Of a DNA stretch of 64,000 nucleotides, positions 11,371 through 34,017 are shown piece by piece. Within the stretch, counting starts at the first letter, position 1; each line of letters opens with the position of its first letter. Under the pieces are notes generated by a model that saw only the letters and a program-made list of their open reading frames with translations, was not told where the DNA came from and did not search any database. The position numbers were made by a program, and so were the translations under genes. Where the stretch lies: positions 1 through 64,000 of the forward strand of contig JAUXUL010000016.1 of assembly GCA_030680795.1 (NCBI GenBank), given 5' to 3'. The DNA is from Anaerolineales bacterium. GTDB lineage: Bacteria; Chloroflexota; Anaerolineae; Anaerolineales; Villigracilaceae.

Positions 11371-11823
11371 TTATCTCAGTCTTTTACCTGCTTCAACCAC
11401 TGCTTTCAATATATTCTGATACGAACCACAGCGACACAAATTTCCAGACAAATATTCACGGATGTCATCTTCACTTGGGTTTGGATTTTCATTGAGTAAC
11501 GCTACTGCTGATAATATAAACCCAGGTGTGCAATAAGCGCATTGGAATGCTCTTTCATCAATGAATGCCTGTTGAACGGGATGTAGCTGCCCATTCTTCT
11601 CGAGGCTTTCAATAGTGAGTATTTCTTTTCCAGGAACCTGTTCCGCTAATGTCAAACATCCACTAATGGGCTTGCCGTCTACCAGCACGGTACATGCTCC
11701 ACACATGCCGATGCCACAGCCTTCTTTTGCGCCGACCAATCCCAAATCATCGCGCAGAACTTCGAGTAACGTCCGCGTCCCCGCCTCGACTTCATGCCTG
11801 CTTCCATTTACATTCAGAATCAT
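11371..11823 (-). CDS. molybdenum hydroxylase small subunit, two [2Fe-2S] clusters
   Basis: Electron-transfer subunit of a xanthine-dehydrogenase/CO-dehydrogenase-type enzyme (150 aa). The plant-ferredoxin-like N-terminal cluster site is CGIGMCGACTVLVDG with the distal Cys in GCLTLAE. The alpha-helical C-terminal cluster site is CAYCTPGF plus GNLCRCGSY. All eight cysteines are present. It overlaps the large-subunit gene by 4 bases (ATGA), the common order for co-translated subunits. It relays electrons from the molybdenum site to the FAD subunit at 14035. Confidence 0.96.
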   Translation of the reverse strand: MILNVNGSRHEVEAGTRTLLEVLRDDLGLVGAKEGCGIGMCGACTVLVDGKPISGCLTLAEQVPGKEILTIESLEKNGQLHPVQQAFIDERAFQCAYCTPGFILSAVALLNENPNPSEDDIREYLSGNLCRCGSYQNILKAVVEAGKRLR

Positions 11824-14066
11824 CGCTGAGACTTCTCCCTTAATGCTCGCAAGATTTTCTCGGCTGTGATCGGCAAATCTTTGATTCTTACGCCAACCGC
11901 ATCTTCAATCGCATTTGCAATCGCGGGTGCGACGGGCGGCAGGGTCATCTCGCCGATTCCGTGCATTTCGCCTTCGCCTGATTCAATGCAAATGCTGATC
12001 AATTCAGCAGGAATATCACGAATGGACGGAATTGAATAATCCGCCAGATTCGGATTGATCGGTTGACCGCCATCGTAGACGATCTCCTCCATCAAGGTAG
12101 GACCCAACCCAAAGATGACGTTGCCGTCATTTTGCAATTGCGCCATGCGCGGATTAACAACCCGCCCCGCAAACGCCGCGGCTGAATATTTCAGGATAGT
12201 AATGCGACCTGTTTCAGTATCCACTTCCACTTCCGCCGCGCCCGCGCCCTGGTGCCAGTGCGGAGTCGCGACTCCCTGCCCCGTTTCTGGGTCAATTCCA
12301 AAAGATGTGGAATACTCGCCAGATTCTTCCACAGTGTTCAAGTCATTGCGCTTAAGAATATCGCCAAATGAAATGGATATTTCATCTGCAACGACAAAAC
12401 CATTTTCAGTCCGCAATCCATCAACAGGCGTTTCCAACAAAGGCGAGCCCAATTCAAACAATTTCTTTTTCATTGTCCCACACGCCGCAATGACGGCATT
12501 GCCCATCATGCTTGTCGAACGGCTGGCGGAGGTAGTTGAGTCAAACGGAGTGATCGCAGTATCGGGTCCGATGATCTTTATCGCCCTGAGAGGCACACCC
12601 AAAGTTTCTGCGGTGATTTGCGCCATCGTGGTATGCCCACCTTGTCCCATCTCAACCGTACTCGTATATAGCGTAACTGTTCCATCATCCTTAAGTTTCA
12701 ACCGCGCTTGAGATTTTGAAGTCGCGACCGTGCTTTTCATCATCACACCATATCCGCGACCCACCCTCATCCCCTGCCCCTCTCCCTTCGGGAGAGGGGT
12801 TAGGGGTGAGGGCACACCCAACCCTTTTGCAGACACCTCAAGACATTCCACAAAATGCACATCATGCAATTCTTCGCCCGTCGCAAAATGTTCGCCTGAG
12901 ACAAACAGGTTTTTCATCCGAAACTCAAACGGATCCCAACCCATCTTACGCGCGATGATATCCATTTGCGATTCATAAGCCCAGGTGGTTTGTGAACTCA
13001 TCGCGCCGCGATACGCACCCGCAGGAGGCAGATTGGTGTAAACACCATACGAATCTACATGCACGGCAGGGATACGATACGGTCCGACCGCGCGCACCAT
13101 TCCCGCAGGTACGAGCATCGGACTGGCATCTGCATACGCGCCGCCATTCCAGTAAAGCGTGGCTTGTCGCGCGGTGAATGTTCCATCACGTTTTACACCT
13201 GTCTTGAGCGTGATGGACGCGGCGTGCTTGGTCACAGTCACAAACTCTTCCGCGCGCGAGAGAACAAATTTTACAGGGCGACCATTCGTCTTGCGCGCCA
13301 TGGCTGCAACCAAAGGTTCAATGCGGATATGGCCTTTGCCGCCGTACCCGCCTCCAAGCGACGGGACGATCACACGCACCGCTTCAGGTGCAATCCCAAA
13401 AATTTCAGATAAAGATTTTCGCACCATGAATGGCGCTTGCGATGCTGTCCAGATCGTTAGATGTTCGCCATCCCATTGTGCGGCTGAGACGTGCGGCTCC
13501 AGTGATGCTTGTTGTGCAACAGGACTTGTAAACGTATCTTCAAAGATTTCATCTGCTTCGGCAAAGGCGGCATCCATATCGCCGTGTCGCAATTTGGCAT
13601 GCTTGAAAATATTGTTCGGGAATTTCTCGTGCAAGTTCGGCGCGCCCGCTTGAATCGCATCCTGCGCGTCGAACACCGCTGGCAGTTCATGGTATTCAAT
13701 ATCAATCAACACTGCGGCTTGTTCTGCAGCATCCAAACTTTCAGCGGCAATCGCCGCAATCGGTTCGCCAACATATCGCACGCGGTCTACAGCAACAACA
13801 CCTTGATCTTTGATCGCAACTCCGTAAAAGGCATTTGCTCCCAGATCTTCGCCCGTGAGAATCGCCACAACACCAGGAATTCGCATTGCGTTCGTTACAT
13901 CCACCTTCAATGATTTTGCATGAGGAGCTTGACTGCGCACGATCTTGCCAAACAACATCTTCGGCAATCGCAGGTTGATCATGTAATCCACAGTGCCCAT
14001 TACACGCGCCACAGAGTCAAGCATCGGTACCGATTCACCGATCACAACGCACCTCCTCCAACGCAC
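11820..14066 (-). CDS. molybdenum hydroxylase large subunit (molybdopterin-binding)
   Basis: Catalytic subunit of a xanthine-dehydrogenase-family hydroxylase (up to 748 aa). GGGYGGKGHIRIEPL is the molybdopterin/Gln-loop region and GIGEMTLPPVAPAIANAI carries the catalytic Glu near the C-terminus. The active-site loop reads PPAGAYRGAM, not the VAYRCSFR-type loop of CO dehydrogenase, so the substrate is more likely an N-heterocycle or aldehyde. The start is uncertain: ATG 14066 overlaps the FAD-subunit gene by 32 bases and ATG 14024 (MLDSVARVMG) is an alternative. Residues about 418-435 (PSPLTPLPKGEGQGMRVG) are an in-frame palindromic repeat absent from the family. Confidence 0.95.
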   Translation of the reverse strand: MRWRRCVVIGESVPMLDSVARVMGTVDYMINLRLPKMLFGKIVRSQAPHAKSLKVDVTNAMRIPGVVAILTGEDLGANAFYGVAIKDQGVVAVDRVRYVGEPIAAIAAESLDAAEQAAVLIDIEYHELPAVFDAQDAIQAGAPNLHEKFPNNIFKHAKLRHGDMDAAFAEADEIFEDTFTSPVAQQASLEPHVSAAQWDGEHLTIWTASQAPFMVRKSLSEIFGIAPEAVRVIVPSLGGGYGGKGHIRIEPLVAAMARKTNGRPVKFVLSRAEEFVTVTKHAASITLKTGVKRDGTFTARQATLYWNGGAYADASPMLVPAGMVRAVGPYRIPAVHVDSYGVYTNLPPAGAYRGAMSSQTTWAYESQMDIIARKMGWDPFEFRMKNLFVSGEHFATGEELHDVHFVECLEVSAKGLGVPSPLTPLPKGEGQGMRVGRGYGVMMKSTVATSKSQARLKLKDDGTVTLYTSTVEMGQGGHTTMAQITAETLGVPLRAIKIIGPDTAITPFDSTTSASRSTSMMGNAVIAACGTMKKKLFELGSPLLETPVDGLRTENGFVVADEISISFGDILKRNDLNTVEESGEYSTSFGIDPETGQGVATPHWHQGAGAAEVEVDTETGRITILKYSAAAFAGRVVNPRMAQLQNDGNVIFGLGPTLMEEIVYDGGQPINPNLADYSIPSIRDIPAELISICIESGEGEMHGIGEMTLPPVAPAIANAIEDAVGVRIKDLPITAEKILRALREKSQR
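12764..12812. repeat. palindromic repeat inserted in frame in a coding sequence
   Basis: Hairpin CCCCTCTCCC (12777-12786), loop TTC, GGGAGAGGGG (12790-12799), extended by CCCTCATCCCCT on the left and AGGGGTGAGGG on the right. This is the CCCTCNCCCC...CCTCTCCC-type extragenic palindrome. Here it lies inside the molybdenum hydroxylase large-subunit gene and is translated as PSPLTPLPKGEG on the minus strand without a stop. A related copy is at 42779. Confidence 0.85.
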
Positions 14067-14895
14067 GCTTCACAAACACGCGGATCATCTCCTTGCGATA
14101 CCACGCCGAACCTCGCACATCAGTCAGTGGATCAAGCCTCAGCGAGTATTCATCTGCAATCGCGGCGACCAGTTCATCGGTCAGGGTTGAACCGTGCGCC
14201 AGCGTTTCCGCATCTCGCACGCGTTGCGGAGTCTCCACTGCCGCGCCCACCGCGATTCGCAAATCCGAACATTTTCGATCATTATCAAAATCAGCGACCG
14301 CACCCACCGCCACACATGGACGCCCCTCGGCGGAGATGGATGTGTACTTGTGATACGCCGCGCTCGCTGACGACGGCAACGTAGGGATGATGACTTCAGT
14401 AAGGATTTCGTTTGGCTCGAGCGCGGTTGTGTAAAAGCCAAGAAAAAATTCACTGAGATGAATTTCACGGTTCTTTTCCGCGCCCTGAACCTGCACGCGC
14501 GCATCGAGAGCAGTTAACATCGCTGGAGGGTCCGCCGCATAATCCGCCGCTGACAAATTGCCGCCGATGGTTGCCTGATTACGTACGCGGACATTGGCGA
14601 CAACGCTGAAAGTATACGCCAGCGCGGGACAAAACTTTTTCACGACATCCGAACGTTCGATGTCGCGCAGTTTGGTCAATGCGCCGATGTGCAAACCATC
14701 TTTTTCATGGCGGATGAAAGCATAATTTGAAATATGACCGAGACTGATCAGCGCAGACGGCGCGATCAACTTTTGTTGAAGCATCAATGTAACCGACACA
14801 CCGCCCGCGATGATCTTTGCATCATCGGCATGTTGGTCAAGCAGTGATATGGCTTCGGTGAAATTTGTGGGTTCGAGGAATTTAATTGGATTCAT
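14035..14895 (-). CDS. molybdenum hydroxylase FAD-binding subunit
   Basis: FAD-binding medium subunit (CoxM/XdhB-type, 286 aa). The two FAD motifs are visible: AGGVSVTLMLQQ (about 30-41) and TIGGNLSAADYAAD (about 105-118). A CO-dehydrogenase-flavoprotein C-terminal domain follows (EIHLSEFFLGFYTTALEPNEIL onwards). I choose the ATG of MNPIKFLEP because the longer frame adds 16 untypical residues. It passes electrons from the 2Fe-2S subunit to an acceptor. Its 3' end overlaps the large-subunit gene, giving the operon order FAD, Mo, 2Fe-2S. Confidence 0.95.
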   Translation of the reverse strand: MNPIKFLEPTNFTEAISLLDQHADDAKIIAGGVSVTLMLQQKLIAPSALISLGHISNYAFIRHEKDGLHIGALTKLRDIERSDVVKKFCPALAYTFSVVANVRVRNQATIGGNLSAADYAADPPAMLTALDARVQVQGAEKNREIHLSEFFLGFYTTALEPNEILTEVIIPTLPSSASAAYHKYTSISAEGRPCVAVGAVADFDNDRKCSDLRIAVGAAVETPQRVRDAETLAHGSTLTDELVAAIADEYSLRLDPLTDVRGSAWYRKEMIRVFVKRALEEVRCDR

Positions 14896-14907
14896 AGGAT
14901 TAAATAT

Positions 14908-14991
14908 GTCGTTGCGAGGGCTGCGTTCGTCCGCCCGAAGCAATCTCCATATCGTGAGGGGGACTGCTTCGCAAAGTGCGCTCGCAACGAC
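14908..14991. repeat. palindromic intergenic repeat
   Basis: Perfect 11-bp outer inverted repeat GTCGTTGCGAG (14908-14918) and CTCGCAACGAC (14981-14991), with inner arms CGAAGCA (14936-14942) and TGCTTCG (14965-14971). The layout (TTGCGAGG...CGAAGCAATCTCC...) is the dispersed palindrome seen in many bacterial genomes. It fills the space between the FAD-subunit and CoxG-like genes. Confidence 0.85.
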
Positions 14992-14999
14992 ATGGCTTG

Positions 15000-15440
15000 T
15001 TATTCAAGTTGCGCTCTCAAATTCTTCGCAAACTCAGCCGTTAACTTTTTCGCGGTTGCAGTAATGACGGGTCCGCCAAATTGCGCCAGCCTGCCGCGCA
15101 GATTGGCTTCCACTTCAAACGCGGCTTCGGTTCCGCCTTCCACGGGAGTCAACGTTCCTGTAAATGTCGCTTTGACAGATGACGCGCTGGATTTGTCGTC
15201 GCCTTCCACTGTGCCCGCAATTCGATTCGGCGCTTCCACTTCTATTAGAGTCACTGTGCCGCCGAATTCTGATTTGATGGGTCCCACTTTGAGGACCAAT
15301 TTGCCGCGATAGGTTTTATCATCCACGGCTTCAACCGATTCAATCCCAGGCACGCATTGACTGAGTTTCGGAATATCGAATAGGAAGTCCCAAACATTAT
15401 CCTGCGGGGCTTTGATCACGAACGAGTCTTTAATCTGCAT
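15000..15440 (-). CDS. CoxG-like SRPBCC-domain protein
   Basis: CO-dehydrogenase subunit G family (146 aa), a START/SRPBCC helix-grip protein. MQIKDSFVIKAPQDNVWDF at the start, CVPGIESVE, the TLIEVEAPNRI strand and the C-terminal helix TAEFAKNLRAQL fit the family. CoxG proteins accompany molybdenum hydroxylase operons; in CO dehydrogenase the protein is linked to membrane recruitment. No hydrophobic anchor is seen in this version. It lies directly upstream of the FAD subunit, separated only by a palindromic repeat. Confidence 0.92.
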   Translation of the reverse strand: MQIKDSFVIKAPQDNVWDFLFDIPKLSQCVPGIESVEAVDDKTYRGKLVLKVGPIKSEFGGTVTLIEVEAPNRIAGTVEGDDKSSASSVKATFTGTLTPVEGGTEAAFEVEANLRGRLAQFGGPVITATAKKLTAEFAKNLRAQLE

Positions 15441-15443
15441 AAT

Positions 15444-15779
15444 CTATTCACTCGCAGGGGCGTGACATAAGAGAACTTCGAGTCCATCCGCGCCTGCCTC
15501 CAGATAAAAAGTATCATCTTTTTCGAGCCATAACATAGACTCGGCATCCAGTGGGAATGATTGCTCGCCTACATAAGCCTGTCCTTTACCACGAACCACA
15601 TACACAAATCTTTCAGGGGCAATTGATTCGAATATTGATGACTTTACACTTGCTTCAAGCGTAATACGCTTGACTTGTAGTGCATCTGTCCCGAGCATGG
15701 CTTGGTTTGCGAGTGTGGTGATGTTTACGCCAGCCTTTTCGCTGACTGGTAAATCTTTTGGTTTAAAAATGGTTGGCAT
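15444..15779 (-). CDS. small cupin-domain protein
   Basis: Single-domain cupin of 111 aa ending SMLWLEKDDTFYLEAGADGLEVLLCHAP. The beta-barrel pattern (FVYVVRGKGQAYVGEQ, then AESMLWLEKDD) is clear, but the metal-binding histidines of cupin motif 1 are not obvious, so it may bind a ligand rather than a metal. It sits 3 bp from the CoxG-like gene and 12 bp from a zinc dehydrogenase gene, so it belongs to the molybdenum hydroxylase transcript. The function is unknown. Confidence 0.85.
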   Translation of the reverse strand: MPTIFKPKDLPVSEKAGVNITTLANQAMLGTDALQVKRITLEASVKSSIFESIAPERFVYVVRGKGQAYVGEQSFPLDAESMLWLEKDDTFYLEAGADGLEVLLCHAPASE

Positions 15780-15791
15780 GGTTTCCTCCGA

Positions 15792-16814
15792 TCATGGTTC
15801 GAGAACAACCCGACCGATAATTTCCTGTTTTCGTAATTTCTGATGTAACGTTTCCGCTTCTTCTAGCGGATATGTTCCTGTAACAATTGGCTTGACGCGT
15901 CCCGCTGCTACCAAAGCAACAACTTCTGCCAACTCGCATTTCGTCACATTGCGCGAGCCAAGGATCTCCCACTCGTTGGCGATCATCGCCTGTGGGCTGG
16001 CTTTCAGTTCAGTGCCTGTGTGTGAACCAACAATGACCATGCGTCCGCCGCGTGAAAGGGATTTCAAAGAGGATTCAAACGTCTTTGTACCTACCAGTTC
16101 AAGGACGACCTCTGCGCCTTCGCCGTTCGTCCATTCGCGGGCTGTTTCTGAGAAGTCGCCTGCTGACGCATCGAAGATTATATCTGCACCAAGTTTGCGC
16201 GCTAGGGCTAGTTTCTCTTCACCGATATCCACTGCCATGACGAACGCGCCCATCATCTTCGCGAGCTGAATCGCATGTGCGCCCACCCCTCCACCCGCGC
16301 CTGTGACAATGACGCGCTCGCCAAGTTGGAGTCGTGCGCGCTTGGTCAGCGCGTGATAGGGCGTTCCGATCGCATTGGCAATCACACTTCCCTCTGGAAA
16401 TGAAATAGACTCTGGTAGTTTTACAAGATTGACCGCGGGTATCGTTGTATATTCCGCGTATGCGCCAGGCGTGTGGATGCCAACATAACCTTTGAAATCC
16501 GCACAGATGGTTTCGCGACCTGTGAGGCAGTAGCGGCATCTTCCACAGGTGAGATAAAGTGTGCTGGTCACGCGGTCGCCTGGCTGGATGTTGTCAACGT
16601 TCGCGCCAACAGATTTGACCACGCCCGCAATCTCATGTCCAAGAATGATCGGCGTTTTGGCGGTCGGAAATTTTCCGTCGCGAATCGTCAGATCGAATTG
16701 ATCCACCGCGCAGGCTTTGACGCGGATCAACGCCTCATCCGCGCCTGGTTGTGGAATGGGTACATCTTCCAAAATTAATGGTCCACCAAACTCTTTGATA
16801 ACAAGCGCCTTCAT
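15792..16814 (-). CDS. zinc-dependent alcohol dehydrogenase (MDR)
   Basis: Medium-chain dehydrogenase of 340 aa. The first catalytic ligand position reads CAVDQFD rather than CGSD. ILGHEIAGV, STLYLTCGRCRYCLTGRETIC (structural zinc) and TGAGGGVGAHAIQLAKMMGA (NAD(P) loop of the quinone-oxidoreductase style) follow. It is distinct from the trio at 8-11 kb. Its start overlaps the stop of the MFS gene by 4 bases, so the carrier and the enzyme are coupled; oxidation of an imported alcohol or hydroxylated ring product is a reasonable guess. Confidence 0.93.
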   Translation of the reverse strand: MKALVIKEFGGPLILEDVPIPQPGADEALIRVKACAVDQFDLTIRDGKFPTAKTPIILGHEIAGVVKSVGANVDNIQPGDRVTSTLYLTCGRCRYCLTGRETICADFKGYVGIHTPGAYAEYTTIPAVNLVKLPESISFPEGSVIANAIGTPYHALTKRARLQLGERVIVTGAGGGVGAHAIQLAKMMGAFVMAVDIGEEKLALARKLGADIIFDASAGDFSETAREWTNGEGAEVVLELVGTKTFESSLKSLSRGGRMVIVGSHTGTELKASPQAMIANEWEILGSRNVTKCELAEVVALVAAGRVKPIVTGTYPLEEAETLHQKLRKQEIIGRVVLEP

Positions 16815-18004
16815 TTCGCAACTACCTCCAAATTATGAACAGGATTGGAAACCGTGAAATAAGCGATCACCGCGCCAAGCGCCAATAAGCCAGTTGCAAG
16901 ACCATATCCGCTGGGCACGCCCAAACCATCTGCCAAATAACCCGCCGTCAATGGTGCAAGCGTTGTACCAATAAAGCGGGCAAAGAATTGCAACGCACCC
17001 GCGGTACCGCGCATGGCAGGGAAATAATCTACCATGATGTTCAGTTGCGCGGCGAAGCCGAAGCCAGCGGTTAACCCGAATGCGAGCAACCCCGCTCCAA
17101 CCACAACTGGTGACATATTCGCAGAAGCAATCGCACTGATGAACGTAATCGCGGCCAACGATAATGTTGCGCCAATCACACCTGCGATCAACGTAAAGCG
17201 CATACCGCGCTGATCGGATACACGTCCGCCCACATACGTGCCAAGGATCACTCCCAAGGCAGTCATCGTGGTGACCGCGCCGATGCCAGCTTCGTGCAAA
17301 TTCATTTTATCGGCGAGCAGGATCGGAGTCAGGATATGAATCGTGTAAATCCCATAGAAATGAACAAAGCCAAGGATGAGCGCTCCGAACGTTGGGAGCG
17401 TGCGTGCGATTGTCCACATATCCTTCAAGCCGACGTTTTGTCCATGAACAGGTTGCGCGGGCAACTGCCAAATGGTGAACACCAAAAGCATGATGGTGAT
17501 GATCGCAAGGATCAGAAAATCTGCGCGCCAACTTAACCACACCGCAATGAGACCGCCAAACGCGGGACCCGATGCTGCGCCTGCCGAGTTGAACATGGAA
17601 AAGACGCCCATCGCGCGACCACGTTCGTTGGTTGGGAATAGATCAGATATAAGCGCAACCCCAACGCCTGCCGCGGCGGCAATGCCCAGCGCTTGTAAAC
17701 TGCGCGCCGCAAGCAGTAAACCGATACCGCGCGTGAAATATGCGCTAAAGTTTCCAATCAAATAAAGCATGAGACCGATCAACAAAATGCGTTTGCTGTC
17801 AAAGCGATCCACGATGGGACCGTATGCGATCTGCGCAAACGCAAGACACAAACCATAAATCGAAATTGTCAGCCCAAGCATTGCGGTTGTTGCGTTCAAA
17901 TCAACTCGCATGACAGCCAATGACGGAACGTAAATTACCTGCGCGAACGAACGCAGGAATGCGGCAAATGAAACAAGATAAAGAACTTTTACCTTTAGAC
18001 TCAT
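16811..18004 (-). CDS. MFS transporter
   Basis: Major facilitator superfamily carrier of 397 aa with about 12 hydrophobic segments. The motif between segments 2 and 3 reads YGPIVDRFDSKRILLIG, a good match to the MFS A-motif. A second copy of the loop motif (GGRVSDQRGMRFT) lies in the middle, marking the second half. It overlaps both neighbours by 4 bases (ATGA), sitting between the OsmC-family gene and a zinc dehydrogenase. Cytoplasmic membrane; the direction and substrate are unknown, but the catabolic context suggests uptake. Confidence 0.93.
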   Translation of the reverse strand: MSLKVKVLYLVSFAAFLRSFAQVIYVPSLAVMRVDLNATTAMLGLTISIYGLCLAFAQIAYGPIVDRFDSKRILLIGLMLYLIGNFSAYFTRGIGLLLAARSLQALGIAAAAGVGVALISDLFPTNERGRAMGVFSMFNSAGAASGPAFGGLIAVWLSWRADFLILAIITIMLLVFTIWQLPAQPVHGQNVGLKDMWTIARTLPTFGALILGFVHFYGIYTIHILTPILLADKMNLHEAGIGAVTTMTALGVILGTYVGGRVSDQRGMRFTLIAGVIGATLSLAAITFISAIASANMSPVVVGAGLLAFGLTAGFGFAAQLNIMVDYFPAMRGTAGALQFFARFIGTTLAPLTAGYLADGLGVPSGYGLATGLLALGAVIAYFTVSNPVHNLEVVAK

Positions 18005-18462
18005 AAACGTTCCCAGGTTACTTCAAAATCAGGCACAGCGGCGCGGATGAGGCTTTGCACGGGGCAGTATCTTTCCGCGAGTTCAATCAAACGGGTTACA
18101 CGCTCATCTGATTCGGTCGTCTTGATCTTCACATGCAAACGAACAGAACTAAAATGCACAGGCACATTTGCTTCGCCTTTGCGACCGCGAATATCCAACA
18201 CGCCTTCGGCAGAGGCTTCCAAACCTTGCAAATCAAATTTTATTTTTTCAGCCATCCTGGCTGATGAGACACCAGTTCAAGCGCAAAGACCCGAAAGCGT
18301 GAGTTCCAGCGGCGTGGGGCCCGTGTTTGTGCCTTCATTGTGCGGCGGCTCATCCGAACGCATCACGGGAAAGTCGCGCACATAAAGATCATTGACACGC
18401 CCGCCCAACCATTTACCTCTGGCACGGATGGTTTTTAGATAATCGGGTTGTTCCATAATCAT
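18001..18462 (-). CDS. OsmC-family protein with in-frame TGA at the redox-cysteine site (candidate selenoprotein)
   Basis: Reads as two short frames (61 and 84 codons) but is one 153-codon gene if TGA 18279-18277 is decoded. The junction is TLSGLCA-(TGA)-TGVSSARMAEKI. In OsmC/Ohr-like proteins the first reactive Cys lies exactly in this LxxxxACTGV position, so TGA replaces it at residue 62. The second redox Cys is kept at about residue 133 (ERYCPVQ). No other stop or frame change exists. A hairpin starts 12 bases after the TGA. OsmC-like selenoproteins are known from bacterial selenoproteome surveys. The gene overlaps both neighbours by 4 bases. Nonsense mutation or sequencing error is the alternative; no selA/B/C/D is in this window. 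Confidence 0.8.
18248..18264 (-). promoter_or_regulatory. putative bacterial SECIS hairpin after the OsmC TGA
   Basis: On the minus strand TCAGCC-AGGAT-GGCTGA forms a perfect 6-bp stem with a 5-base loop. The loop begins 18 bases after the TGA, and G is the second loop base. Bacterial SECIS elements usually have the apical loop about 16-37 bases after UGA with a G among the first two loop bases, so the geometry fits. The short stem is a weakness, and a 6-bp hairpin can occur by chance. Confidence 0.6.
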
Positions 18463-19655
18463 CCTTTTGCGACAACAAATTTCATCGGATATTTTTGCAA
18501 ACTCAGCGCGCCGTTTTTCGTCACACGCGTCAACGCGCCTACCTGCAAGCCCATGCGCTCATCGGGCGTGATCGGATTCGGCTGAACGACCATCGCCATA
18601 TCTTCCGCAAATGTCCTGCCCGCAGGGATGGGCTTCGCAGCATTCCAATAATCACAACACGATTGATCAATCAACGGCGGATGAATATCCACGCCATATC
18701 CGTGGATCAAATCATCATAGATGCGATAGCCCGACTCGCCGATGATTGACGCGGCTTTGATTACATCCCCCTCATTTGCGTTGGGACGTATTGCCTCACA
18801 GATCTGACCGTAAGCCTGCTTGCCAGCCTCAAAGAGTTTTTGCCAAGCTGGGGTTGGATCCTGTCCCACCGCAATCGGACGGTGGATCTGCCCTGAATAG
18901 CCCCAATAACTGGCGCTAATCTCCATGATGATCACGTCACCTTTTTGGATTACCCTATCAGTTACATTCTGCGCAGGGACGCAAGCCGTCGGCGCATCCA
19001 TCGGCATGGAGCGCAAAAATGCGATGTGCGGCTGTCCGCCTTTGCGACGATAGGATGCTTCGACAATTCCGATCAGGTCGAATTCGGTCATGCCCACACG
19101 GATTTCATTTTCCAATGCCGTGACAGTATCATCCGTATATTCGGCGGCGATCTTCAACCAGTCAAATTCTTCTTCGCTTTTGATAACACGTAAACGAGCA
19201 TAATCACGTGTGACGTCAACCCATTCAACTTCAGGCAACGAATCGCTCAAGGTCTTGTAATGTTGAAATGGCATTCCCATGCCAAATGTCGCATTGATAC
19301 CAACCAACCCGACTCGTCCCTTGCCGATACCATCGTTCTTTAATTTGGCAACGATCTCTTGGGCAGGGTCATACGTTCCCCAACGCGTATCGGGGATCAC
19401 AGACGCTGTGCGCGCGTTCGGCACATGATTGACAAGCCCCGTGAGCAGGGTCGCTTCACCATCCAATGGAAAGACAAGATAATTGTGGTGCAGGTCGAGA
19501 TAATTCGTTAACCAAAAAACATTTGCTTCATTGTGACGATTAATGCCAGAGTTGCCGAAGACCACCAGTGCGGAAATTCCCTCGCGGCGCATCAGATCGT
19601 GTGCGAGGTTATTCCTCCGTTGAAACTCAACGTCAGAGAAGCGCGGATAGGTCAT
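18459..19655 (-). CDS. M24 (pita-bread fold) protein lacking metal ligands
   Basis: Xaa-Pro-peptidase/creatinase superfamily protein, 398 aa, with the N-terminal creatinase-like domain and C-terminal pita-bread domain. The five usual metal ligands are largely absent: the first Asp is Glu in GDVIIMEIS, the second is replaced in WGYSGQIHRP, the late Glu residues become Gln in MVVQPNP and GLQVGALTRV; only the His in IHGYGVDIHPP remains. Creatinase is a known metal-free member of this fold, so a non-peptidase hydrolase is likely. It overlaps the OsmC gene and the alpha/beta hydrolase gene by 4 bases each. Confidence 0.92.
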   Translation of the reverse strand: MTYPRFSDVEFQRRNNLAHDLMRREGISALVVFGNSGINRHNEANVFWLTNYLDLHHNYLVFPLDGEATLLTGLVNHVPNARTASVIPDTRWGTYDPAQEIVAKLKNDGIGKGRVGLVGINATFGMGMPFQHYKTLSDSLPEVEWVDVTRDYARLRVIKSEEEFDWLKIAAEYTDDTVTALENEIRVGMTEFDLIGIVEASYRRKGGQPHIAFLRSMPMDAPTACVPAQNVTDRVIQKGDVIIMEISASYWGYSGQIHRPIAVGQDPTPAWQKLFEAGKQAYGQICEAIRPNANEGDVIKAASIIGESGYRIYDDLIHGYGVDIHPPLIDQSCCDYWNAAKPIPAGRTFAEDMAMVVQPNPITPDERMGLQVGALTRVTKNGALSLQKYPMKFVVAKG

Positions 19656-20710
19656 CCAAGTTTTTCCTTTAACCAGTCAGCAGTGAGCGGACGATACGCA
19701 AAAGGAATATTGTTGCAGACGTGATTGCCGTTCTCGAACATTGCCAACTCAGCATTCGAGCCAACTGCATCCACGATCTTCACTGCCTGCTCCCAAGGAA
19801 TCAATCTATCGAGCCTGCCTTGAATGACAAGCAGCGGCTGTTTAATCTTCTGCGCCACACCCTCCAATGAAAGTTTATTCGCATTGGCTTTGGCTTCCTC
19901 TTCATTCTTCGCGCCCGAGTGATGTTGGAATGCGGCGCGCGTGAGCGATGGCAATACTGACCAGCATTCCGCAAAGTTCCATGGACCACAATTCCCCACT
20001 GCGGCTTTGACACGCGGTTCAAAGGCGGCGGCGCGCGGCGCATAATATCCGCCAAGACTGACGCCTGCAAGCCCGATTCGGTTTGGGTCAATATCTTTGC
20101 GTTTGGTCAATGTGTCCACCGCAGTGGAAACTGCGGCTTCGTAATCGGGACGGATATGAGAGTTGTATCCGCATTCCCCCTGACCAGGTCCATCGAGCGA
20201 GAAAGTCGCCAGTCCGCGTTTGAGGAAGACATTTTCCCAGGAGAAAAATTCCTCTTTAGTTGAATCAAGCCCAGGCAGGAGGAGAACGAGAGGCGGGTTT
20301 TTTATATCCACGGGACGTCGCAGAGTCCCGACCATCGTCGCGCCATCGAAGGGAATTTCCACGCGCTCGCCTGTTGGGTCAAGCAGTTTCAAACCTTTGG
20401 CGAAAGCCTCCACTGATTTGTTCGCAGCGGACATATATTCATCGTGAAAATCCTGAAAGACAAATTTGCCGAAGTGATAACAAAGCGCCGCGCTGATGTA
20501 AGCTTCGCCCGCGCTGATGGAATTACCGCTGGCTTCCGCTTTCACTGCAAGATCGTAATGTGTATCGCCCGTCACGAGCCACTCGCGACACCAATCCTCC
20601 CACTTCTCAACGCGCGCGGTGGTACGATAGAAATCGTTGTAATCAACGCCCTGTGATGTGAAACGCGGCGCCCAGTTTTTTATTGCGGCTTCTACTCGTT
20701 CATCTGGCAT
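19652..20710 (-). CDS. alpha/beta hydrolase, C-C-hydrolase-like (2,6-dihydroxypseudooxynicotine hydrolase family)
   Basis: Serine hydrolase of 352 aa with a helical N-terminal region (about 1-115) before the catalytic domain. The oxyanion region is LLLPGLDSTKEEF, the nucleophile elbow GVSLGGYYA (Ser about 224), the acid QGRLDRLIP (Asp about 302) and the base NGNHVCNN (His about 332). Length and helical extension match the family of 2,6-dihydroxypseudooxynicotine hydrolase, which cleaves a carbon-carbon bond after molybdenum-hydroxylase steps in nicotine breakdown. The molybdenum hydroxylase in this operon makes a ring-degradation role attractive, but the substrate is inferred. Good evidence for the fold, moderate for the subfamily. 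Confidence 0.92.
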   Translation of the reverse strand: MPDERVEAAIKNWAPRFTSQGVDYNDFYRTTARVEKWEDWCREWLVTGDTHYDLAVKAEASGNSISAGEAYISAALCYHFGKFVFQDFHDEYMSAANKSVEAFAKGLKLLDPTGERVEIPFDGATMVGTLRRPVDIKNPPLVLLLPGLDSTKEEFFSWENVFLKRGLATFSLDGPGQGECGYNSHIRPDYEAAVSTAVDTLTKRKDIDPNRIGLAGVSLGGYYAPRAAAFEPRVKAAVGNCGPWNFAECWSVLPSLTRAAFQHHSGAKNEEEAKANANKLSLEGVAQKIKQPLLVIQGRLDRLIPWEQAVKIVDAVGSNAELAMFENGNHVCNNIPFAYRPLTADWLKEKLG

Positions 20711-22215: not shown

Positions 22216-22593
22216 TCATATATCGTCAGTTTTTATCCATATCGTTTCTTTTGGCGGTGGTCCCCAAAATTCAACAAATGAAAAATTTTCCTGTGTATCG
22301 TTCTCGAACCAATGCACTTCGCTTGGCGCAACGACAGCGACCATGCCTGGGGACAGTCGGTGACTGCCTTCATCCACGTGCAAAATGCCGTTGCCATACA
22401 ACACATAAAAGAGATGATGACAATCGGTGTGGTAATGTTTGGCGGCGGTATCGCCGGGGTGATAGATGATACGGTCTGCGCGGATGAACTGCGCGCCCAA
22501 TTTGACGTTGTCCGTCACAAGGTCGAGTCGATCGCGCGTATCGCGCGTCGAATGCAAATGCGGCAGTTGATCGAATGTCAGTAGTCTTGCCAT
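22216..22593 (-). CDS. cupin-domain protein
   Basis: Single cupin of 125 aa. Motif 1 is HYHTDCHHLFYVLYGNG, with the two His and a further His but Asp/Phe in place of the usual Glu. Motif 2 is GMVAVVAPSEVHWFEN with the conserved His. Metal binding is therefore likely. It ends near a hairpin and begins one base after the stop of the amidohydrolase gene, so the two are co-transcribed. Enzyme or sensor cupin is undecided. Confidence 0.88.
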   Translation of the reverse strand: MARLLTFDQLPHLHSTRDTRDRLDLVTDNVKLGAQFIRADRIIYHPGDTAAKHYHTDCHHLFYVLYGNGILHVDEGSHRLSPGMVAVVAPSEVHWFENDTQENFSFVEFWGPPPKETIWIKTDDI

Positions 22594-29353: not shown

Positions 29354-30706
29354 TCAGCTCAACATTCCCAACGGTTCTTCGATCAGGTTTGCTAGATCAT
29401 CTAGAAATTGAGCCGCGCGCGCGCCATCTACGACGCGATGATCACACGAGAGGGAGAGGGTCATCATGGACCGAATTTCTGGCTGCCCATTGACAGGGAC
29501 AACTCGCTCCGCGATTCTCCCTACTGCCAGAATAGCGGCTTGGGGTGTGTTAACGATTGCGTTGAACACGTCCACGTTATACATGCCTAAATTTGATAAT
29601 GTGAAGGTTCCATCGGAAATATCCACAGGGCGGAGTTTGCGGTTTTGAGCGCGCTCGATCAAATCTTTTCGTTGCGCGGCGATTTCACTGATTGATGAAC
29701 TATCTGCATGGCGAATCACTGGAACAATGAGTCCATCATCAATCGCGGCGGCAATGCCGACATTAATATCCTTGTTGAATTGAATATTGCCATTTGTCCA
29801 GGCCGCATTGACTCGCGGATGTTCACGCAAAGCAAAACCGATCAATTTGACAAGCAGGTCAGTATATGTAGGCTTGATACCGTTTTGTTTTTCAGCCATC
29901 GCTACGATGCGTATACGCCTTTCGATAAGATTACTGGCATCCACATCACGAATGAGATAAAAGTGCGGGACAGTTGTCCAACTGGCGGTCATGCGTTCCG
30001 CCATCACGCGCCAGACTGTGCTTGGAGTCTCCAATCTGCCTACTGAACCGACAGTCACTGCTTCAAGAGGCACATCAGCAACCAGGACTGCGCCATCGGG
30101 ACCTGAGCCTTTGAGTGTTGTGATATCAATGCCGCGCTCGGATGCAAGTCTGCGGGCTTTGGGAGAGGCTGGCATCAGCCGCGTTGGGGAGGAAAGGCTT
30201 GACGCAGCAGAAGCAGGCCGAGGTGTCGTTTGACGCGTGGCGTCCATGTAAGCCAGAACATCCGCTTTCTCGATTCGCTTTCCATTTGATTTCACCAGCG
30301 CGAGGTCAATCCCATGTTCGTCGGCGATGTTGCGCGCCAGCGGGGAAACTTCGAGTGCGATGTTGCCCGGGGTTTCAGTTGTCTTTGATTTACCGTCGCC
30401 GCGTACAGCGACAGTTGAAGCGCGACCAGAATGTGAATCGAGAGGTGAAGAGGGAGGCGCTTTTTCGCCCGGCGCAAGAATCCAAGCGATCGTCTGGCCG
30501 ACCGGCACGACATCGTTCTCTTTGACGAGAACGCCGCCGAGTATCCCGGAAGCAGGCGCTTCGATCTCAATCGTGACCTTGTCGGTTTCAATCTCCATGA
30601 GCGCTTCGCCTTTTACAACGGATTCACCATCGCGCTTAAGCCAGCTCACGAGTCTGCCAGACTCTTGCGTCATTTCAAGTGCGGGCATAATGACACTGGT
30701 CGCCAT
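29354..30706 (-). CDS. 2-oxoacid dehydrogenase E2 (dihydrolipoyl acyltransferase)
   Basis: E2 core of a 2-oxoacid dehydrogenase complex (450 aa). The lipoyl domain has the attachment Lys in EIETDKVTIEIEA (Lys43). Two peripheral subunit-binding motifs follow, VSPLARNIADEHGID (about 120-152) and ASPKARRLASERGID (about 179-212); most E2 proteins have one. The catalytic domain ends with LSCDHRVVDGARAAQFL. Pairs with E1 beta and E1 alpha at 32034 and 33013. The substrate (pyruvate, acetoin or branched-chain oxoacid) is not readable, and no E3 gene is in the window. Confidence 0.95.
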   Translation of the reverse strand: MATSVIMPALEMTQESGRLVSWLKRDGESVVKGEALMEIETDKVTIEIEAPASGILGGVLVKENDVVPVGQTIAWILAPGEKAPPSSPLDSHSGRASTVAVRGDGKSKTTETPGNIALEVSPLARNIADEHGIDLALVKSNGKRIEKADVLAYMDATRQTTPRPASAASSLSSPTRLMPASPKARRLASERGIDITTLKGSGPDGAVLVADVPLEAVTVGSVGRLETPSTVWRVMAERMTASWTTVPHFYLIRDVDASNLIERRIRIVAMAEKQNGIKPTYTDLLVKLIGFALREHPRVNAAWTNGNIQFNKDINVGIAAAIDDGLIVPVIRHADSSSISEIAAQRKDLIERAQNRKLRPVDISDGTFTLSNLGMYNVDVFNAIVNTPQAAILAVGRIAERVVPVNGQPEIRSMMTLSLSCDHRVVDGARAAQFLDDLANLIEEPLGMLS

Positions 30707-32032
30707 TTATCCTCGAACTGCCTTGACCATTTCCACAACCTGTTCGTTCAATTCAGGTTCATGCGTACGCGTGGTGGGCAATGGCCCGGTGGCAGTGTAA
30801 TAATGATGGCCGGCGACCATCAGATCGTTAGCGGGGAAGCGCGTGATGATCTCGTGACCTGCTTCGGTGACGACAATCTCTTCCTCGATGCGTGCCGCGC
30901 TCCAGCCATCTGTGGAAGGCCAATAAGTTTCAAGCGCAAAGACCATGCCTGGTTTGATCTCGGCCGGATGATCGAGCGAGACGAGCCTACTGATGACCGG
31001 CTTCTCCCAAATCGCGAGACCAACACCATGCCCATATTGTAGGGCGAATGCCGCTTCTTCATTTGGGAATCCGAACTCGGTTGCCTTGGGCCACACGGAG
31101 GCGATCTCAGCGGTCGTGCGTCCGGGGCGGACAAGTTCAATCGCCGCATCAAGATAGTCACGGCAACGTTTGTAGGCATCTGTCATGGCATGAGACGCAT
31201 AGCCGATGGTGAAGGTGCGATAGTAGCAAGTGCGATAGCCCATGTAGGATTGCAAAATGTCGTAGTAAACAGGATCGCCGGGGCGTAACATGCGATCAGA
31301 AAAGACATGCGGGTGAGGATTACAGCGTTCGCCTGAAATCGCGTTGACCGCTTCGACATATTCCGAGCCGAGATCGTAAAGAACTTTGGAGACCAGACCG
31401 ACCGCTTCGTTCTCGCGCATGCCCGGTTTCATGGCGCGGTACAACTCATCGTAAGCCGCGTCCACCTGCGCGGCGGCGTGTGTGAGTAATGCGATTTCAT
31501 CCACTGTCTTGATGACGCGCGCTTCGGACAATAATTGCTGACCGTCAACAATCGTCAATCCCCTTTTCTGGAGTTCGAACAATACTGGCAGCTCGGCAAT
31601 ATCAACACCGACGGGTTCTTTCTCCAAACCGCGTTCTTTGAGTTCTGTCCAGATCTTATTTGCCACATCTTCGGCGCGGCCCATTTCGGGAGACATGGCA
31701 CCGCGCAGCAGGGAAATGCCGGCGCGCGATCTTTTTTCACCCAGCCAGGGCGAGTAGAGTTGATGATGTTTTGCGGCAGACCCAAAGTCCCACAAGATCG
31801 GTTCGTCATCCTGTGGCAAAAGCGTAAAACGATTCGCCTTATCCTGCGCCCAAGTACCTATGTGAGTTGCGGTGATGTAGCGCACGTTGTTCATGTCGAA
31901 GCATAGCAGAGCACCCATCTCGGATTTTTTAAGCAGATCTTTGGCGCGATCCAGCCGTTCGCGGCGCAAGCGGTCAAAATCAATGCGCTGTTCCCAATCC
32001 ACAGCCATCGTGCCATAAGTTTTGATTGCCAT
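30707..32032 (-). CDS. M24-family Xaa-Pro peptidase-like protein
   Basis: Pita-bread-fold protein of 441 aa. Metal positions are mostly kept: Asp in PVYYDILQ, His in YGHGVGLA, Glu in FALETYWP and Glu in ARIEEEIVV; the second Asp position reads GYRTCYYRT and is lost. The gene is placed between E2 and E1 beta of a 2-oxoacid dehydrogenase operon, with its stop touching the E2 start and 1 base from E1 beta. Ectoine hydrolase and creatinase relatives in this family act on amide bonds in catabolism. A similar role is possible; dipeptidase activity is the default. Confidence 0.93.
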   Translation of the reverse strand: MAIKTYGTMAVDWEQRIDFDRLRRERLDRAKDLLKKSEMGALLCFDMNNVRYITATHIGTWAQDKANRFTLLPQDDEPILWDFGSAAKHHQLYSPWLGEKRSRAGISLLRGAMSPEMGRAEDVANKIWTELKERGLEKEPVGVDIAELPVLFELQKRGLTIVDGQQLLSEARVIKTVDEIALLTHAAAQVDAAYDELYRAMKPGMRENEAVGLVSKVLYDLGSEYVEAVNAISGERCNPHPHVFSDRMLRPGDPVYYDILQSYMGYRTCYYRTFTIGYASHAMTDAYKRCRDYLDAAIELVRPGRTTAEIASVWPKATEFGFPNEEAAFALQYGHGVGLAIWEKPVISRLVSLDHPAEIKPGMVFALETYWPSTDGWSAARIEEEIVVTEAGHEIITRFPANDLMVAGHHYYTATGPLPTTRTHEPELNEQVVEMVKAVRG

Positions 32033-32033
32033 A

Positions 32034-33026
32034 TCAATCTCTCCTACATAGTGTCTTAGCCATTTGAAATACAGTCTCTTCTGTGGGTACGGTTAAATCT
32101 TCCAAAGCTGGTGAAAACGGGATCGGTACATTCATCGCGCCCATGCGTTTGACGGGCGCATCAAGATAATAAAATGCGCCATCCGCGATCACCGATGCGA
32201 TCTCTGCGGTGACGCCATAACTTTCATATCCTTCGTCAATCACAATGGCGCGCGAGGTTTTCTTTGCCGACTCAATGAATGCCTGTCTGTCAAGCGGAGT
32301 AGTCGTGCGCGGATCAATGACCTCAGCGCTGATCCCGATTTGTTCCAGCATATTTGCTGCTCCGAGCGCAACCTGGACCATCGAGCTGGTTGCCACCAAA
32401 GTGATATCATCTCCCTTTCGCTTTATATCTGCAACTCCGAACGGGATGGTGTATTCCTCGGCGGGGACGGGGCCCTTCATTTTGAACATCATCTTGTCTT
32501 CGATAAAGACAACGGGATTGTCATCACGAATGGCGGTTTTGAGCAAACCTTTCACGTCATACGGCGTGGACGGAATGACCACTTTCAATCCTGGCACATG
32601 ACTGACCCAGGCCTGCAAACTCTGGGAATGCTGCGCGCCCGAACGGCGTGACGCGCCCATTGTTGTGCGAAAGACAATAGGCGCTTTCATCTTGCCGCCA
32701 GACATGTAATGAATCTTCGCGGCTTGATTGACGATTTGATCCATGGTTAGGGTGAGAAAATCCCCAAACATGATATCAATCACAGGTCTCATGCCCGTGA
32801 TTGCTGCGCCAATACCCATGCCCGTAAAACCAGGCTCCGAAATGGGCGTATCCATGACACGTTCCTTGCCAAATTCTTCCACTAAACCAGACAGCACCTT
32901 GAACGGCGTGCCGGCCTCGGCAACATCCTCGCCCATGATGAAAACATTCGAGTCGCGGCGCATTTCTTCCGCCAGCGCTTCGCGCACCGCCTCGGCAAAT
33001 GTTATTTCGCGCTCAGGCGTAGACAT
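32034..33026 (-). CDS. 2-oxoacid dehydrogenase E1 beta subunit
   Basis: Transketolase-like pyrimidine-binding subunit of the E1 component (330 aa). MGEDVAEAGTPFKVLSGL with the conserved Glu, ISEPGFTGMGIGAA and the C-terminal domain VIDPRTTTPLD and VIDEGYESYG are characteristic. It overlaps E1 alpha by 14 bases. Together with alpha it decarboxylates a 2-oxoacid using thiamine diphosphate and loads the E2 lipoyl group. Confidence 0.96.
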   Translation of the reverse strand: MSTPEREITFAEAVREALAEEMRRDSNVFIMGEDVAEAGTPFKVLSGLVEEFGKERVMDTPISEPGFTGMGIGAAITGMRPVIDIMFGDFLTLTMDQIVNQAAKIHYMSGGKMKAPIVFRTTMGASRRSGAQHSQSLQAWVSHVPGLKVVIPSTPYDVKGLLKTAIRDDNPVVFIEDKMMFKMKGPVPAEEYTIPFGVADIKRKGDDITLVATSSMVQVALGAANMLEQIGISAEVIDPRTTTPLDRQAFIESAKKTSRAIVIDEGYESYGVTAEIASVIADGAFYYLDAPVKRMGAMNVPIPFSPALEDLTVPTEETVFQMAKTLCRRD

Positions 33027-34017
33027 GTTGATTTACCTCGCTTTGATCGGGGTAGGGCGCGTCAATGCCGAACTGCATCCCTTTTTCCACTTCGGATCTC
33101 ACATCTGTTACAATGCGATCCAACACAGACTGATCGGTAAGTTTTCCCCCGACAAGTTTGTCTGCGAGTAATTTCAATGGGTCGCGCTTATTACGCCACT
33201 CCTGTTCCTCTTCCTTTGAACGATAGTAAGTTCGGCTGATGTCGCCGACATGATGTCCGTAATAACGATAAGTCATACATTCCAGAAACGCTGGCCCTTC
33301 GCCGCGGCGGGCGCGTTCCACCAAGCGTTTGGTTGTCTCGTACACCAACTGCACATCCTGCCCGTCAATAGTTTCAGCATGGATGCCGAACGCTTCTGCG
33401 CGGGCGGTTACTTTGCCGGCCAGCGCTTCACTGTAGTGTGTATATTCGTTGTAAAGGTTATTTTCGCAAACATATATGATGGGCAGTTTCCATAGCGAAG
33501 CCATGTTCATCACTTCATATAATAAGCCTTGACCTAAAGCCCCCTCACCAAAGAAACAAACCGCCACCTGATCACTTCCGCGCTTCTTTGCAGATAGTGC
33601 AGCGCCAGTCGCGATTCCCGCGCTCCCACCAACAATCGCGTTCGCGCCGAGATTTCCTGAAGCGGGATCGGCGATGTGCATCGAACCGCCTTTCCCGCGG
33701 CAATAGCCCGCTTCCTTTCCCAAAAGTTCGGCGAACATCAAATCCACCGACGCGCCTTTGGCAAGACAATGTCCATGTCCGCGATGTGTGCTGGTGATGT
33801 AATCCTCGCGCCGCAATGCTTCGCAGACTCCCACCGCCACCGCTTCTTGTCCCGAATACAAGTGGGTGAGTCCGGGCATGATGGCTTTCAGATACAACTC
33901 GTTTGCCTTCTCCTCGAACTCACGGATTTTGACCATCTTTTCGTAGACGTGCAGCCACTGCTCGACATCCATCGCTTCAGGACTGCGCTTTGTGGCTGAT
34001 TCTGTTTTCCTGGTCAT
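33013..34017 (-). CDS. 2-oxoacid dehydrogenase E1 alpha subunit
   Basis: Thiamine-diphosphate-binding E1 alpha (334 aa). The ThDP motif begins GDGA-like as CFFGEGALGQGLLYEVMNMA and ends in ENNLYNEYTHY, with GKGGSMHI and TYRYYGHHVGD regions. It resembles acetoin/pyruvate dehydrogenase alpha proteins. It overlaps the oxidoreductase gene upstream by 4 bases (ATGA), so the operon order is oxidoreductase, E1 alpha, E1 beta, M24, E2. Confidence 0.96.
   Translation of the reverse strand: MTRKTESATKRSPEAMDVEQWLHVYEKMVKIREFEEKANELYLKAIMPGLTHLYSGQEAVAVGVCEALRREDYITSTHRGHGHCLAKGASVDLMFAELLGKEAGYCRGKGGSMHIADPASGNLGANAIVGGSAGIATGAALSAKKRGSDQVAVCFFGEGALGQGLLYEVMNMASLWKLPIIYVCENNLYNEYTHYSEALAGKVTARAEAFGIHAETIDGQDVQLVYETTKRLVERARRGEGPAFLECMTYRYYGHHVGDISRTYYRSKEEEQEWRNKRDPLKLLADKLVGGKLTDQSVLDRIVTDVRSEVEKGMQFGIDAPYPDQSEVNQHVYA

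What the first reader, a model, noticed from the sequence alone, without database searches (positions are those of the whole stretch)
18001..18462. Candidate selenocysteine in an OsmC-family protein
TGA 18279-18277 is in frame and falls exactly at the OsmC reactive-cysteine position (GLCA-TGA-TGVSS). The second redox Cys (ERYCPVQ) is kept and 84 downstream codons stay open. A minus-strand hairpin TCAGCC-AGGAT-GGCTGA puts its loop 18 bases after the TGA with G as second loop base, matching bacterial SECIS rules as I know them. OsmC-like proteins are a reported bacterial selenoprotein family. Sec as the peroxidatic residue in a catabolic operon would be notable.
Basis: partly seen in the sequence, partly recalled or inferred. 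Interest (0 to 1): 0.85.

Follow-up and report, generated by a model that had tools for sequence, protein, structure and literature searches.

The report
Selenocysteine OsmC-like redox protein gene
A gene for a small redox protein carries an in-frame UGA codon that is very probably read as selenocysteine at the protein's reactive site; it is a new branch of a selenoprotein type already known from other bacteria.

Summary
TGA 18279-18277 (-) is in frame and lies in the reactive-Cys column of an OsmC protein (PF02566, E 5.8e-20). The genome has selA, selB, tRNA-Sec and selD, and selD has its own in-frame TGA. Five orthologues (50-59% identical; four from Chloroflexota, one from an unnamed bacterium) have TGA at the same codon; four further members of the clade have Cys. 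The 6 TGA copies share one hairpin 19 nt downstream, with one A-U/G-C double change and a rare AGG Arg codon; the 4 Cys copies lack it. Pseudogene, sequencing error and code change are thereby very unlikely. OsmC-like selenoproteins are known since 2005, with motif UxxT. This clade has CxU and UxxV, scores below the curated NCBI model (75 against 95 bits) and groups apart from that lineage. I rate it a new variant of a known kind. It lies in a partly conserved gene cluster (alpha/beta hydrolase, M24 enzyme, CoxG, Mo hydroxylase). Its substrate is unknown; a selenol-based peroxidase or similar redox role is inferred, not shown.

The parts
18001..18462 (-). osmC-like selenoprotein gene, 153 aa; its start overlaps the M24 gene stop (ATGA) and its stop overlaps the MFS gene start (ATGA)
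18277..18279 (-). UGA codon 62, predicted selenocysteine, in the reactive-Cys column
18248..18264 (-). SECIS-type hairpin TCAGCCA-GGA-TGGCTGA, 19 nt after the UGA
18283..18285 (-). Cys60 of the CxU motif (LCAU/LCAC), kept in 10 of 10 members of this clade
18064..18066 (-). Cys133, second redox Cys (resolving-Cys position of OsmC); Ser in one Cys-type orthologue, L118
18459..19655 (-). M24 family (creatinase/prolidase-like) enzyme, neighbour
19652..20710 (-). alpha/beta hydrolase (FrsA-like), neighbour
16811..18004 (-). MFS transporter, start overlaps the osmC-like stop
15444..15779 (-). small cupin-like protein (my reading; no Pfam hit at E 1e-5), neighbour
15000..15440 (-). CoxG family protein, neighbour
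11371..14943 (-). molybdenum hydroxylase subunits (2Fe-2S, MoCo and FAD)
29354..34017 (-). 2-oxoacid dehydrogenase-type E2 (lipoyl domain), a second M24 protein, E1 beta and E1 alpha, in the wider gene cluster

Best explanation
The gene encodes a selenoprotein of the OsmC superfamily. By the established bacterial mechanism, SelA, SelD and tRNA-Sec supply Sec-tRNA, and SelB bound to the hairpin at 18264-18248 delivers it to UGA 18279-18277; the UGA that ends the gene (18003-18001) has no such hairpin and stops translation. Sec62 sits in the central helix and Cys133 at a helix break. The likely chemistry, inferred: the Sec62 selenolate attacks an oxidised substrate (perhaps an organic hydroperoxide formed in the pathway), the selenenic acid is resolved by Cys133 or by Cys60 of the CxU motif, and a dithiol (perhaps the lipoyl E2 encoded in the same cluster) reduces the enzyme. 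The gene lies in a partly conserved catabolic gene cluster with an alpha/beta hydrolase, an M24 enzyme, CoxG and a Mo hydroxylase. How sure: Sec insertion about 0.96; a redox role tied to that cluster about 0.7; peroxidase as the actual reaction about 0.4; lipoyl reductant about 0.25.
For: Fold and family: PF02566 E 5.8e-20 (that copy had one extra residue for the final stop). AlphaFold2 model, Cys put at 62, mean pLDDT 95.7, residue 62 in helix 51-73, 133 at a helix break; solved OsmC proteins are nearest, Z 16.7 with 1lql, 14.3 with 2opl. Column: of 126 rows (joined, window included; L126 and L127 identical) 114 have Cys and 12 TGA; six of the 12 (L105-L110) were fetched because one search had flagged a TGA. 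Machinery in G000: selA 450.6 bits, selB 349.5, tRNA-Sec 64.9, anticodon TCA, selD 361.6 with TGA in ACAGUASKL and a rule-abiding hairpin. SECIS: 6 of 6 TGA copies at -8.6 or -9.0 kcal/mol, same place; 0 of 4 Cys copies reach -7.5. The Arg codon in the loop is AGG in 6 of 6, CGG and CGC in the Cys copies L118 and L120; AGG is 15 of 207 Arg codons in 13 neighbouring genes. Selection: downstream of the TGA pN is 0.12-0.27 and pS 0.59-0.92 in 21 of 21 pairs of 7 sequences, two of them Cys copies. Every internal stop listed is TGA. Neighbours shared.
Against: No protein or read data. In the window's own family none of 151 other genomes gave an orthologue (best match 33% identical, E 2.1e-13), so the gene is sporadic. 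Covariation rests on one pair, perhaps one event: 27 of 500 shuffles reach the score and 251 of 500 the number of double-changed pairs; the outermost pair is broken in 3 of 6. Folding the whole 45 nt does not separate the forms: L118 -12.5, L123 -13.5 and L138 -18.8 (Cys) against -10.2 for the window; only the unbulged hairpin at the right distance does. G342, with a TGA copy (89% complete), shows no selB over the cut-off, though selA at 472.5 bits. Three of four Cys copies live in genomes with selB. One of 8 neighbouring stop TGAs (gene 22216-22593) is followed by a rule-abiding hairpin, -9.8. The peroxidase step is untested; no Arg lies in residues 37-50 of the window protein.
Confidence: 0.9

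Rival explanations
1. Nonsense mutation: the gene is a pseudogene, or translation stops at codon 62 and restarts at ATG 18255.
For: An 84-aa ORF with ATG at 18255 exists. Decay does occur in relatives: L182 is a 5'-truncated remnant with TAG and TAA.
Against: Five other genomes keep TGA at the same codon and the hairpin; the protein is conserved on both sides; the restart ATG lies inside the hairpin and is TTG in L122.
Confidence: 0.02
2. Sequencing or assembly error: the true codon is TGC or TGT (Cys).
For: Relatives L118 and L120 have TGC. No reads could be examined.
Against: TGA at this codon in five other assemblies; the four Cys copies lack the hairpin, the window has it.
Confidence: 0.01
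3. UGA is read as another residue (Trp, Gly or near-cognate readthrough), not Sec.
For: The codon alone cannot tell.
Against: TGA ends 8 of 13 neighbouring genes; apart from TGA the column holds only Cys in the rows examined; full Sec machinery.
Confidence: 0.01
4. It is an ordinary member of the described OsmC-like selenoprotein family (UxxT; NCBIfam NF041052).
For: NF041052 is its best NCBIfam hit (75.3 bits); same superfamily, same column.
Against: Below the curated cut-off of 95 for the window and for 5 of 5 other Sec members of the clade (61.8-73.3 bits), whereas L105 of the UxxT lineage scores 140.2 (L107, L108 and L110 not scanned); motif UxxV with CxU; on the tree Cys rows lie between the lineages, though several deep forks are open.
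Confidence: 0.1

Closest known systems
OsmC-like selenoprotein of the Sargasso Sea and GOS surveys (UxxT; COG1765/PF02566; NCBIfam NF041052)
   Same: OsmC family, Sec in place of the reactive Cys, SECIS-type hairpin downstream
   Different: Motif UxxT there (by motif the lineage of L105, L107, L108, L110: ULLT or UMLT), UxxV plus a Cys two before Sec here; scores below the NF041052 cut-off; separate clade on the tree
Ohr/OsmC thiol peroxidases (e.g. 1n2f, 1nye, 1vla)
   Same: Fold, reactive residue in the central helix, second Cys in the C-terminal part
   Different: Sec instead of Cys; catalytic Arg not established; peroxidase activity untested
GSU2788 OsmC-like protein, PDB 2opl
   Same: Best solved relative by sequence (E 3.6e-13) and by Foldseek
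   Different: Cys protein titled only as OsmC-like; Ser at the second redox position ('KYSPV')
OsmC protein of 400 aa, PDB 9wo1
   Same: OsmC domain at residues 276-389
   Different: The rest of 9wo1 is, by recall and not by a call, an alpha/beta hydrolase; here hydrolase and OsmC are separate genes with the M24 gene between them

Membership tests
Bacterial selenoprotein gene | In-frame UGA at a position that is Cys in homologues | tested here: met
Bacterial selenoprotein gene | SelA, SelB, tRNA-Sec and SelD in the genome | tested here: met
Bacterial selenoprotein gene | bSECIS limits of PMC13188914: loop 3-9 nt, stem 4-16 bp, G in first two loop positions, 16-37 nt from UGA, MFE <= -7.5 | tested here: met
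   loop 3 (GGA), stem 7, 19 nt, -9.0 kcal/mol
Bacterial selenoprotein gene | Selenium actually incorporated | not testable with these tools
   needs labelling or mass spectrometry
OsmC superfamily (PF02566) | Profile match and fold | tested here: met
OsmC-like selenoprotein, NCBIfam NF041052 | Curated score cut-off 95 bits | tested here: not met
   75.3 bits; 61.8-73.3 in the 5 other Sec members
OsmC-like selenoprotein, published UxxT form | UxxT motif | tested here: not met
   UTGV in the window, UTNV, UANV or UINV in the others; motif from PMC1088965
Ohr/OsmC peroxidase | Reactive and second Cys positions (one Sec here) | tested here: met
Ohr/OsmC peroxidase | Catalytic Arg and Glu (triad, PMC5962072) | tested here: inconclusive
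   Glu53 nearly invariant in A2, its register to Ohr Glu51 not settled; no Arg in the window's residues 37-50
Ohr/OsmC peroxidase | Hydroperoxide reduction with lipoyl or other dithiol reductant | not testable with these tools
   needs enzyme assay

The most novel reading that the evidence does not exclude
A separate Cys-to-Sec lineage of OsmC with a CxU centre, dedicated to one catabolic pathway (Mo hydroxylase, alpha/beta hydrolase, M24 enzyme, lipoyl-dependent dehydrogenase) rather than to general peroxide defence, and reduced by the lipoyl E2 of its own gene cluster. Sec and Cys have been exchanged within it more than once while the cluster role stayed, and one Cys copy has even dropped the second redox Cys, which suggests that the CxU/CxC pair can do the resolving.
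Probability: 0.2. Interest if true: 0.6.

Novelty: new variant of a known kind. Interest (0 to 1): 0.42.

Why it matters
It adds a Sec lineage of OsmC that falls below the cut-off of the curated model for this selenoprotein type, so such genes are probably annotated as truncated (inference; no annotation was examined). The clade holds close natural Sec and Cys versions (L119 and L120: 75% identical upstream and 80% downstream of the codon), which makes it a ready system for asking what Sec adds to OsmC chemistry. It also ties an OsmC protein to a set of catabolic partners, which may help to find a substrate for a superfamily whose activity is partly unknown.

Tried and rejected
Family search: 87 of 151 other genomes gave a match at E 1e-3, the best 33% identical, none with a stop inside, so no close orthologue. 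First genome-contig scan with the single protein: 41 stretches, none confirmed; the scan with alignment A1 worked. Viral contigs: 36 stretches, none confirmed. Plasmids: 115 records, all under 60% identity; only the 15 listed rows were seen and none was aligned. Order of G441: 2 of 25 genomes at E 1e-20, both already known. Last order search: 10 of 400 genomes at E 1e-15, window's genome included; L181 shares a 60-base stretch with L118 and is taken as the same gene; L182 is a decayed remnant; the other seven (31-38% identical) were not aligned after that call, though L053 and L054 are. Rfam on the window: nothing at gathering score. TGA-readthrough ORFs in the window: two short ones, neither with a hairpin at -7.5 or below; this scan is not exhaustive, for its overlap filter also dropped the osmC-like gene itself.

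Dropped rows and gaps: L167, L178 and L180 were left out of the tree; of the 64 loci I put 19 into it. In one search the site finder failed on L133. Hairpins were tested by rule in 6 TGA and 4 Cys copies only. In the other Sec lineages my rule, which allows no bulge, is met by 1 of 6 (L110, -11.1); L105 reaches -7.0, L107 and L108 -6.5, L106 and L109 -5.5. The tree has 141 columns for 82 rows and 29 open forks of 78, so the order of lineages is uncertain. No coordinates of the model were inspected; the Sec62-Cys133 distance was not measured.

Literature: PMC1088965, PMC2398784, PMC9312934, PMC13188914, PMC12013277, PMC5962072 and PMC4069020 were seen as found passages only; other papers as search listings. 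That this branch is not in print rests on searches of one open-access library and on the single OsmC mention (UxxT) in the 2026 review.

Full report
The observation. On the minus strand an ORF of 153 codons (18462-18001 with its stop) carries one in-frame TGA at 18279-18277, codon 62. Read through, it matches OsmC, PF02566, E 5.8e-20. Its start codon overlaps the stop of an M24 enzyme gene and its stop overlaps the start of an MFS gene, so it probably lies in one operon with them (inference).

The Cys column. I aligned the window protein with 64 loci from genome searches and with 65 loci from genome contigs. Four loci are shared. Of 126 rows, window included, 114 have Cys and 12 have TGA at the column of codon 62; no row has anything else. 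Six of the 12 were fetched on purpose because one search had flagged a TGA. The queries had Cys at this place and stops were read through. Every internal stop listed was TGA.

The clade. Beside the window, TGA copies are L116, L117 (same as L051), L119, L121 and L122 (same as L052), 50 to 59% identical to the window. By their record titles four are Chloroflexota; L121 is an uncultured bacterium. Cys copies are L118, L120, L123 and L124. L119 (Sec) and L120 (Cys) are sisters, support 98/93, so Sec and Cys have been exchanged inside the clade; the tree does not give the direction.

The hairpin. In all 6 TGA copies a 6 or 7 bp stem closes GGA (GGT in L122), 19 nt after the UGA, at -9.0 (three copies) or -8.6 kcal/mol (three copies), within the limits quoted in PMC13188914 (passage). 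The four Cys copies reach at best -4.7. Folding the whole 45 nt does not separate the two forms. One pair changes A-U to G-C, three copies each, and the outermost pair is lost in three; against shuffles this is modest (27 of 500 reach the covariation score). The loop's Arg codon is AGG in all six although AGG is 15 of 207 Arg codons in 13 neighbouring genes and synonymous sites downstream are strongly diverged (pS 0.59-0.92). The Cys copies L118 and L120 use CGG and CGC. As nulls, 151 of 3912 codon positions in the 13 genes are followed by such a hairpin, and 8.75% of recodings of the window stretch contain one (11.65% for L119, 4.05% for L121, 1.95% for L122). The gene's own stop TGA and the preceding M24 stop TGA have none; one of the 8 neighbouring stop TGAs has one.

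The machinery. G000 holds selA, selB, tRNA-Sec (TCA) and selD; selD has a TGA in ACAGUASKL (that SelD is often a selenoprotein at this place is recalled). Of the six genomes with TGA copies of this clade five have selB over the curated cut-off. G342 has not, but has selA at 472.5 bits. Of the four genomes with Cys copies three have selB over the cut-off (G631 and G698; that of L118). That of L120 has none over the cut-off, and its best SelA match has 45.8 bits, over Pfam's low cut-off of 22.8 but far from the 342-473 bits of the other five genomes in that call. Of the six genomes with other Sec lineages four have selB over the cut-off; G857 (220.1 bits) and G792 do not but have selA at 341.7 and 466.8 bits. 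TGA is the stop of 8 of 13 neighbouring genes.

The protein. AlphaFold2 on 22 aligned rows, with Cys at 62, gives mean pLDDT 95.7, residue 62 in helix 51-73 and residue 133 at a helix break. The nearest solved structures are OsmC proteins. Ohr crystallised with dihydrolipoamide is among them (6ebg), and lipoylated proteins are the reductant of Ohr (PMC4069020 passage). A lipoyl-domain E2 is encoded at 29354-30706; the link to this protein is inference.

The neighbourhood. Loci reach at most about 5 kb to each side, so absence proves little. Relatives of the window's neighbours lie near the OsmC gene: the alpha/beta hydrolase in L116, L117, L118, L121, L123 and L124; M24 in L117, L118 and L121; CoxG in L116, L117 and L118; the small cupin-like protein in L116, L117, L118 and L119; the Mo hydroxylase large subunit in L116, L117, L118 and L119 (59-64% identity) and a distant one in L121 (32%). 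L119 and L120 share the amidohydrolase with the window; the stretch held for L120 lacks the others just named but has relatives of the ABC transporter, GntR regulator and a dehydrogenase of the cluster. L122 has only the EamA gene and weak ABC matches. The longer stretch around L117 (L111) also has the E1 and second M24 genes at 73-78%. Partners are shared by Sec and Cys forms. The pathway's substrate is not known.

What is known. OsmC-like selenoproteins were reported in 2005 (three sequences, UxxT; PMC1088965), in 2008 (first count 5, UxxT; PMC2398784), and stand as one UxxT entry in reviews of 2022 and 2026. NCBIfam NF041052 models them with a cut-off of 95 bits. L105, of the ULLT lineage, scores 140.2; the window 75.3; the eight other members of its clade that I scanned 61.8-80.1 (L123 not scanned); L106, of a third lineage GTUTAM, 39.9. 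On the tree the label Sec needs five changes and Cys rows lie between the three Sec lineages, but several deep forks are open.

Verdict. Sec at codon 62 is as well supported as comparison allows. The kind is known; the branch, its CxU motif and its gene cluster are not covered by the curated model or by the passages I read. The reaction is open.

Noticed in passing
L019:1501-2433 (G000:C5:9855-10787): The genome's selD has an in-frame TGA in ACAGUASKL followed by a hairpin within the SECIS limits (-8.6 kcal/mol), so it is probably a selenoprotein gene too.
   Followed up: yes
L105, L107, L108, L110: Four more Sec OsmC genes in the phylum, of the AAFU lineage (ULLT/UMLT, UxxT); one Cys counterpart in L094.
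   Followed up: partly
L106, L109: A third Sec OsmC lineage, GTUTAM; L106 is far below the NF041052 cut-off (39.9 bits).
   Followed up: partly
L118:5001-5441: Cys-type orthologue in which the second redox Cys is Ser (RYSPV) while the CxC motif is kept.
   Followed up: no
L182:1501-1695 (G978): A 5'-truncated, decayed remnant of the same gene, with TAG and TAA, next to an unrelated reading frame.
   Followed up: partly
window 8013-35702: Long minus-strand catabolic cluster: Mo hydroxylase, two M24 proteins, zinc dehydrogenases, ABC transporter with a Peripla_BP_6 binding protein, acyl-CoA dehydrogenase, E1/E2 of a 2-oxoacid dehydrogenase type complex, GntR/FCD regulator; substrate unknown.
   Followed up: partly
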